The notes beneath the pieces were generated by a model that made no database searches, was not told the origin of the DNA, and saw only the letters and a list, made by a program, of their open reading frames with translations. Shown here piece by piece: positions 1 to 569 of a DNA stretch of 64,000 nucleotides (position 1 is its first letter; each line of letters opens with the position of its first letter). The DNA is taken from NCBI RefSeq assembly GCF_007049795.1, contig NZ_SCFY01000004.1, forward strand, positions 1 to 64,000, in the 5' to 3' direction. The translations under genes and the position numbers were made by a program. Source of the DNA: Ectopseudomonas mendocina. Its GTDB lineage: Bacteria > Pseudomonadota > Gammaproteobacteria > Pseudomonadales > Pseudomonadaceae.

Positions 1-1
1 T

Positions 2-36
2 AATGCCAGTCAGTTAAGCTGACTGGCATTTTTATT
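2..36. terminator. 29-base palindrome with T-rich flank
   Basis: AATGCCAGTCAG, a 5-base loop and CTGACTGGCATT form a perfect 12-bp stem (2-30), followed by TTTATTT on the plus strand. It looks like an intrinsic terminator. It overlaps the stop codon of the putative transposase remnant, so it may instead be the end of the insertion sequence. Confidence 0.5.
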
Positions 37-98
37 TCTGGTCGGATACTTGGACGGCTTGGGTTTGACCGCCCGCGGATAACTGCGATCCTCACGAA
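10..98 (-). pseudogene. 3' remnant of a probable IS4-family transposase
   Basis: Reading the minus strand from about 98 down to a TGA at 10-12 gives a short basic C-terminal tail containing REDRSYPRAVKPKPSKYP. A tail of the form RSYPRAVK followed by a Lys/Pro-rich stretch is how I remember many gammaproteobacterial IS4-family transposases ending. Only about 29 codons are present. The frame then runs into adapter-like sequence at 99-123, so nothing upstream is transposase. This is either a contig-end fragment of an insertion sequence or a chimeric join. The family call is recollection only, because no catalytic residues lie in this scrap. Confidence 0.4.
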
Positions 99-123
99 GC
101 TCGGAGAGGTGTATAAGAGACAG
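99..123 (+). other. Nextera (Tn5 mosaic-end) adapter sequence left in assembly
   Basis: The 19 bases at 105-123 match the Tn5 mosaic end AGATGTGTATAAGAGACAG at 18 of 19 positions (T to G at 108). The preceding GCTCGG (99-104) continues the match into the Nextera read-2 adapter. Natural Pseudomonas DNA would not be expected to carry this, so it is most simply a library adapter carried into the assembly. Sequence to its left may not be contiguous with groES in the genome. Confidence 0.85.
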
Positions 124-275
124 ATGTAGCAGTCACCGCAAGGTGCCTGCCCTCTGAGGCAGTCCAACTTTCGCGGTGCGCCCAGCGTGCCGCACCCGGC
201 CTAGCCGGATTTTACAAACCCGCCGACCACTCAAGAGTCGGCAAGTTGGCCATCAATTGTTAGGAGAGATCGACA
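124..275 (+). promoter_or_regulatory. groES leader region
   Basis: This holds the ribosome binding site AGGAGA (262-267) and a hairpin, GCCGAC / GTCGGC, at 222-227 and 237-242. A second small hairpin is CTGCC / GGCAG within about 148-163. I could not find a convincing sigma-32 heat-shock promoter (CTTGAAA with CCCCAT). It may lie upstream of the adapter junction and so be missing from this assembly. Confidence 0.4.
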
Positions 276-569
276 ATGAAGCTTCGTCCTCTGCATGACC
301 GCGTCGTGATCCGTCGCAGCGAAGAAGAGACCAAAACCGCAGGCGGCATCGTGCTGCCGGGTTCGGCCGCCGAGAAGCCGAACCAGGGTGAAGTCGTTGC
401 CGTCGGTACCGGTAAGGTTCTGGATAACGGCGAAGTCCGTCCGCTGGCCGTCAAGGTCGGTGACAAAGTGGTATTCGGCCCTTACTCCGGCAGCAACACC
501 GTCAAAGTCGACGGCGAAGACCTGCTGGTAATGGGCGAGAACGAAATCCTCGCTGTCATCGAAGCCTGA
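276..569 (+). CDS. groES: Co-chaperonin GroES
   Basis: Seven-subunit lid of the GroEL folding chamber in the cytoplasm. The 97-residue product has the normal family length. It starts [14 protein letters not shown] and carries the mobile-loop region [20 protein letters not shown], which contacts GroEL, followed by the GEVVAVG strand and the [19 protein letters not shown]-terminus. ATG 276 follows a strong AGGAGA with a suitable spacing of 8. groEL follows after 48 bases, so the two form the classic bicistronic operon. Codon use matches the neighbouring chromosome. Confidence 0.98.

What the first reader, a model, noticed from the sequence alone, without database searches (positions are those of the whole stretch)
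99..123. Library adapter embedded in the assembly
Bases 105-123 match the 19-base Tn5 mosaic end used in Nextera kits with one mismatch, and 99-104 extend the match into the read-2 adapter. The boundary between the transposase-like scrap and the groES leader falls exactly here. The first ~120 bases are therefore suspect, and statements about what lies upstream of groES in this genome should not be made from this assembly.
Basis: partly seen in the sequence, partly recalled or inferred. Interest (0 to 1): 0.75.

Follow-up and report, generated by a model that had tools for sequence, protein, structure and literature searches.

The report
Sequencing adapter glued before groES
Bases 99-123 match the Nextera sequencing adapter with one mismatch, and bases 1-97 match a transposable-element end found elsewhere in the genome; the adapter is almost certainly a laboratory leftover and the join to the groES chaperone gene a likely assembly error, so this is very likely an artefact and not biology.

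Summary
The window is the first 64 kb of contig C44 in a 58-contig draft genome (likely Pseudomonas, from its relatives). Bases 99-123 match the Nextera Tn5ME-B adapter at 24 of 25 bases. The same genome carries the mosaic end at three other places: C57 ends in the complete Tn5ME-A oligo plus seven index bases, C13 ends in the mosaic end, and C1 has the oligo and the same seven index bases inside the contig, at a likely false join. Bases 1-97 are an IS4-family element end shared exactly with C3's start and C20's end: a 97-base assembly overlap, not DNA next to groES. In 17 of 19 named Pseudomonas records the groES leader is preceded by GCCCAC. The upstream gene fxsA lies at the end of contig C38, whose genuine sequence stops 4 bases short of C44's on the closest relative. 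So C38 and C44 are almost certainly neighbours. One refinement: C44 alone says nothing about the DNA upstream of groES, but the assembly as a whole still does. No novel biology; low interest beyond data hygiene.

The parts
1..97 (-). Terminal 97 bases of an IS4-family insertion sequence (transposase C-terminus and terminal hairpin), read from the outer tip inwards; a likely de Bruijn k-mer overlap, not a true neighbour of groES
   Evidence: 100% identical to C3:1-97, the last 97 bases of C20 and C3:157306-157402; the complete element on C3 encodes Nterm_IS4 + DDE_Tnp_1; in the four internal IS copies read, base 97 is followed by CGATGAGG, here by adapter
98..98 (.). Single base at the IS/adapter join; A here, G in the adapter
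   Evidence: sequence against Tn5ME-B
99..104 (+). Last six bases of the read-2 (Tn5ME-B) tail, GCTCGG
   Evidence: oligo in PMC4248319
105..123 (+). Tn5/Nextera 19-base mosaic end, 18 of 19 (T to G at 108)
124..275 (+). Genuine groES leader; the tagmented insert likely starts here
   Evidence: 92% and 96% identical to two relatives by BLAST from 121 to 300; local alignment starts at 124; its first 20 bases are found in 19 named Pseudomonas records
276..569 (+). groES (Cpn10)
   Evidence: Pfam PF00166
618..2264 (+). groEL (Cpn60)
   Evidence: Pfam PF00118

Best explanation
Bases 99-123 match the Nextera (Tn5 tagmentation) adapter at 24 of 25 bases and are almost certainly untrimmed library DNA, and bases 1-97 are an insertion-sequence end that the assembler likely attached by mistake at a coverage gap. 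Likely steps: (i) a tagmented fragment began at ATGTAG (124), so a read with untrimmed adapter ran ...GCTCGG-mosaic end-ATGTAG; (ii) coverage failed over a few bases in the groE promoter region, leaving two dead ends (C38's right end after fxsA, C44's left end before groES); (iii) the assembler, working with 97-base overlaps, carried the adapter into the dead end of C44 and joined both dead ends to k-mers of a multicopy IS4 element. Shown: both contigs carry these foreign ends, and their genuine parts lie 4 bases apart on the closest relative. Inferred: the coverage gap and the order of events inside the assembler.
For: Adapter: 24/25 over 99-123; 3 of 98 readable contig ends score 16 or more against the two oligos, the best of the other 95 scores 9, and bases 201-400 of the same ends reach at most 10. 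Library signature: full Tn5ME-A plus AGCTAGA at C57's end, and Tn5ME-A (one mismatch) plus AGCTAGAT inside C1; these seven bases are the reverse complement of the last seven of TTCTAGCT, which stands between the P5 tail and Tn5ME-A at three contig starts of another draft, G055, and is listed as index S515-C in a passage of PMC7589761 (there in primers with a different tail). Of 56 other genomes searched with up to 1 mismatch, only G055 has hits, 5 of 5 within 60 bases of a contig end. Overlap: 72 of 98 readable ends share an exact stretch of 40 or more bases with another end, and 67 of them share exactly 97. True upstream: on relative locus L006, C38's genuine sequence stops at base 1499 and C44's starts at 1504. 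Second example: C1's left part and C18's end abut within 3 bases in G012 and G008, inside an exonuclease VII gene, with adapter on one side and a foreign 97-mer on the other.
Against: Only six of the 15 read-2 tail bases are present; base 108 and base 98 differ from the adapter. Raw reads are not available, so absence of spanning reads is not shown. How dead ends became attached to IS k-mers was not reconstructed. The 4-base gap is counted on a relative (BLAST, letting CA of the adapter match by chance, gives 1 base), and on L007 the alignment of C38 stopped 77 bases earlier. 26 of 98 ends share no such overlap, C38's and C57's IS-capped ends among them.
Confidence: 0.97

Rival explanations
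1. A real IS4-family insertion lies between fxsA and groES, and only the 25 adapter bases are artefact.
For: Both sides of the break carry IS4 ends: C38 ends in the left end and C44 starts with the right end.
Against: The ends are inside-out: the inner, transposase-gene side of each end faces the flank, whereas the four internal copies have their outer tips at the flanks. The same inside-out pair splits a DUF1631 gene between C3 and C57, at the same IS position on the C3/C44 side and one base apart on the C38/C57 side. The two further copies whose right ends are seen at C20's end and C38's start sit at terminator-like sites, with C43 likely between them (a 10-base duplication fits C43/C38, none is seen for C20/C43).
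Confidence: 0.02
2. The 25 bases are natural bacterial DNA that resembles a Tn5 mosaic end by chance or is a native Tn5/IS50 end.
For: One mismatch from the mosaic end, and a transposase fragment next to it.
Against: 0.01 matches expected in the window and 0.0004 in the genome; none of the 19 named records has it before the leader, and none of the 35 same-genus genomes has it anywhere with up to 1 mismatch; the same genome has adapter with index bases at C57 and C1; the neighbouring IS4 element has other ends, TAATGCCAGTCA.
Confidence: 0.005
3. A PCR or ligation chimera made in the library, rather than the assembler, joined the IS4 end to the adapter-bearing groES fragment.
For: IS, adapter and insert are contiguous, so one chimeric molecule would also give this sequence.
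Against: The foreign part is exactly one 97-base overlap, and C3 and C44 leave the IS at the same base although their flanks are unrelated; independent chimeric molecules would be expected to break at different places.
Confidence: 0.2

Closest known systems
Nextera Tn5ME-B adapter oligo (GTCTCGTGGGCTCGG + 19-base mosaic end)
   Same: 24 of 25 bases at 99-123, in the orientation expected for an adapter preceding an insert
   Different: T to G at 108; only the last six bases of the 15-base tail are present
Adapter-contaminated draft assemblies (here also genome G055)
   Same: mosaic ends, in part with index, at contig ends
   Different: in this genome the adapter also lies inside contigs: 99-123 of C44 behind an IS fragment, and C1:130123-130163 at a likely false join
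IS4-family insertion sequence (Nterm_IS4 + DDE_Tnp_1)
   Same: 1-97 is 100% identical to the right end of the complete copy on C3
   Different: only 97 bases, inside-out relative to groES, no target duplication seen there

Membership tests
Nextera/Tn5 tagmentation adapter | 19-base mosaic end | tested here: met
   18 of 19 at 105-123; single hit in the window
Nextera/Tn5 tagmentation adapter | Read-1 or read-2 tail directly 5' of the mosaic end | tested here: met
   GCTCGG at 99-104, six of the 15 tail bases; a full read-1 tail stands at C57
Nextera/Tn5 tagmentation adapter | Sample index next to the tail | tested here: inconclusive
   No index is visible at 99-123 itself; elsewhere in the same genome seven index bases follow the oligo at C57's end and in C1
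Nextera/Tn5 tagmentation adapter | Reads soft-clip at the insert boundary | not testable with these tools
   no raw reads
Real IS4 insertion upstream of groES | Outer tip of the element faces the flank | tested here: not met
   inner side faces groES and fxsA
Real IS4 insertion upstream of groES | 10-base target duplication as in the C57 and C1 copies | tested here: inconclusive
   none seen between CCCTTGCCCGC and ATGTAGCAG; copies on C57 and C1 have one, but copies on C3 and C20 also lack it
de Bruijn k-mer overlap | identical terminal stretch of fixed length shared by several contig ends | tested here: met
   97 bases shared by C44 start, C3 start and C20 end; 67 of 98 readable ends share exactly 97 with another end; other shared lengths seen run from 94 to 383

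The most novel reading that the evidence does not exclude
At coverage gaps in a tagmentation-based draft, dead contig ends are systematically capped with inside-out insertion-sequence k-mers and adapter, which mimics IS insertions in essential promoters and genes and could be a general, detectable signature of false IS-gene junctions in public draft genomes.
Probability: 0.25. Interest if true: 0.3.

Novelty: not a real feature. Interest (0 to 1): 0.12.

Why it matters
Taken at face value the contig would place a transposase fragment directly upstream of an essential chaperone operon and hide its promoter. The same kind of break splits other genes in this assembly (a DUF1631 gene between C3 and C57; an exonuclease VII large-subunit gene between C1 and C18), and contig C1 likely joins regions that lie 1.93 Mb apart in relative G012. 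Anyone using this assembly for gene order, promoters or IS insertions should trim or break it at these places.

Tried and rejected
Chance match or native Tn5 end: rejected by counts and by index-bearing adapter elsewhere. Real IS insertion before groES: rejected by inside-out ends. A shared break motif: the groES break and the C1/C18 break both fall at GCCCGCCCAC in relative G012, but that 10-mer is assembled intact 14 times in this genome (19, 19, 24 and 14 times in four relatives), so it is not a general cause. A degenerate mosaic end at C14's start (12 of 15 by eye) was not among the 24 best rows of the scored scan and is not counted. A resemblance of ACGAAGCT at 94-101 to the adapter-index junction at C57 and C1 was noticed and not resolved. 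A plasmid-collection search with 1-300 gave 6 records, all matching only the IS part or its first bases. Paper searches for adapter-contaminated assemblies and for terminator-targeting IS4 elements were seen as listings with abstract starts only; none is used as evidence. Of two papers I saw single passages.

Full report
What was checked. The window is G000:C44:1-64000, the start of a 284,583-base contig in a 58-contig, 5,097,355-base draft. The genome itself is unnamed; the genus is taken from close relatives, all 19 named ones being Pseudomonas. Bases 105-123 match the Tn5 mosaic end at 18 of 19 positions, the only match in the window with up to 3 mismatches, with 0.01 expected. GCTCGG at 99-104 continues into the read-2 adapter, giving 24 of 25. 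Tn5ME-A and Tn5ME-B were confirmed in a passage of PMC4248319.

Adapter elsewhere in the genome. With up to 2 mismatches the whole genome holds 4 matches: C44:105-123; C57:218982-219000, followed by the rest of the complete Tn5ME-A oligo, AGCTAGA and the contig end; C13:74810-74828, one base from the contig end; and C1:130123-130141, inside the contig, followed by the Tn5ME-A tail and AGCTAGAT. Of 116 contig ends, 98 are readable (the 18 ends of C45-C53 read N). Three of the 98 (C57, C44, C13) score 16 or more against the oligos, the next best end scores 9, and bases 201-400 of the same ends reach 10. A search with up to 1 mismatch in the own genome and 56 others finds hits in the own genome and in G055 only. 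G055's five hits lie within 60 bases of a contig end (for C101 judged from the locus length), and the three of its contig starts that I read show part of the P5 tail, TTCTAGCT and Tn5ME-A. TTCTAGCT is listed as S515-C in a passage of PMC7589761, there in primers with a different tail. Its reverse complement is AGCTAGAA: C57 shows its first seven bases and then ends, C1 shows the same seven and then T instead of A. Seven index bases are thus shared by two unrelated loci of this genome.

What bases 1-97 are. They are identical to C3:1-97, to the last 97 bases of C20 and to the right end of a complete element at C3:157306-157402. That element encodes a 452-aa IS4-family transposase (Nterm_IS4 and DDE_Tnp_1). 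Of the 98 readable ends, 72 share an exact stretch of 40 or more bases with another end, 67 of them exactly 97 bases, as expected for an assembly with 97-base overlaps. In the four internal copies read, the IS continues after the base equivalent to 97 with CGATGAGG; C44 continues with adapter and C3 with a DUF1631 gene. So 1-97 is best read as an overlap node, not as neighbouring DNA.

What really lies upstream of groES. Homology to relatives G012 and G008 begins at 121 by BLAST and at 124 by local alignment. In 17 of 19 named Pseudomonas records the bases before ATGTAGCAG end in GCCCAC; P. jinjuensis and P. schmalbachii differ. CTTGAAA lies within 40 bases upstream in 18 of 19, and in the 19th (L206) the contig starts at TTGAAA. 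CTTGAAA and the C-rich element before CATGTA resemble a sigma-32 heat-shock promoter (consensus recalled, not tested). fxsA lies upstream of groES on the same strand in 43 of 48 relatives' loci; the other five (L206, L208, L210, L212, L214) hold at most 185 bases upstream of the leader, too little to reach it (at least one relative is among the 48 twice). In this genome fxsA (Pfam PF04186) sits on C38, whose genuine sequence ends after CCCTTGCCCGC; on L006 it stops at base 1499 and C44's starts at 1504, 4 bases between. BLAST puts 1 base between them because CA of the adapter matches by chance. On L007 the local alignment of C38 ended earlier, at 1425, so the count rests on L006. After CCCGC, C38 runs into the IS4 left end, inside-out.

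The same pattern at other breaks. The DUF1631 gene is divided between C3 (residues 1-248) and C57, each capped with an IS4 end inside-out; the linker between them is too variable to count the gap. C1's sequence left of its adapter continues in G012 and G008 into C18's end: 1 and 3 bases apart by local alignment, 1 base apart and 1 base overlapping by BLAST. In G012 this point lies inside a 459-aa exonuclease VII large-subunit gene. C18 ends in a 97-mer shared with both ends of C11. Right of C1's adapter the first match in G012 starts about 455 bases away and lies 1.93 Mb from the left one, so C1 is likely a false join; a true rearrangement in this strain is not excluded by synteny alone, but adapter at the join makes it unlikely.

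Conclusion. The adapter identity is shown by sequence. Its origin as untrimmed library DNA follows from the index-bearing copies. The misjoin of the IS end is inferred from the 97-base overlap and the inside-out orientation. Raw reads were not available.

Noticed in passing
G000:C1:130123-130163 (L167 3124-3164): Adapter plus index bases inside contig C1; the left side abuts C18's end in two relatives, the right side matches 1.93 Mb away in G012, a likely false join that splits an exonuclease VII gene.
   Followed up: yes
L164 (C57 copy), L163 (C1 copy), C43 end / C38 start: IS4-family copies sit in what look like intrinsic terminators; copies on C57 and C1 have 10-base target duplications and C43/C38 fit one (GCCCTTCGGG), copies on C3 and C20 have none.
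   Followed up: partly
L162 (C20) and L163 (C1): Two 561-base internally deleted derivatives of the 1,426-base IS4 element, both ends kept.
   Followed up: partly
L225-L228 (G055 contig ends): A second draft genome of the same order carries Nextera adapter at contig ends, with index TTCTAGCT at the three contig starts read.
   Followed up: partly
L206 (NZ_QASO01000085.1): The P. indoloxydans contig also ends 23 bases upstream of the groES leader match, so this promoter may be hard to assemble in general; the other 18 named records read through.
   Followed up: no
window 94-101: ACGAAGCT also occurs where the adapter tail meets the index at C57 and C1; whether base 98 comes from the index is unresolved.
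   Followed up: no
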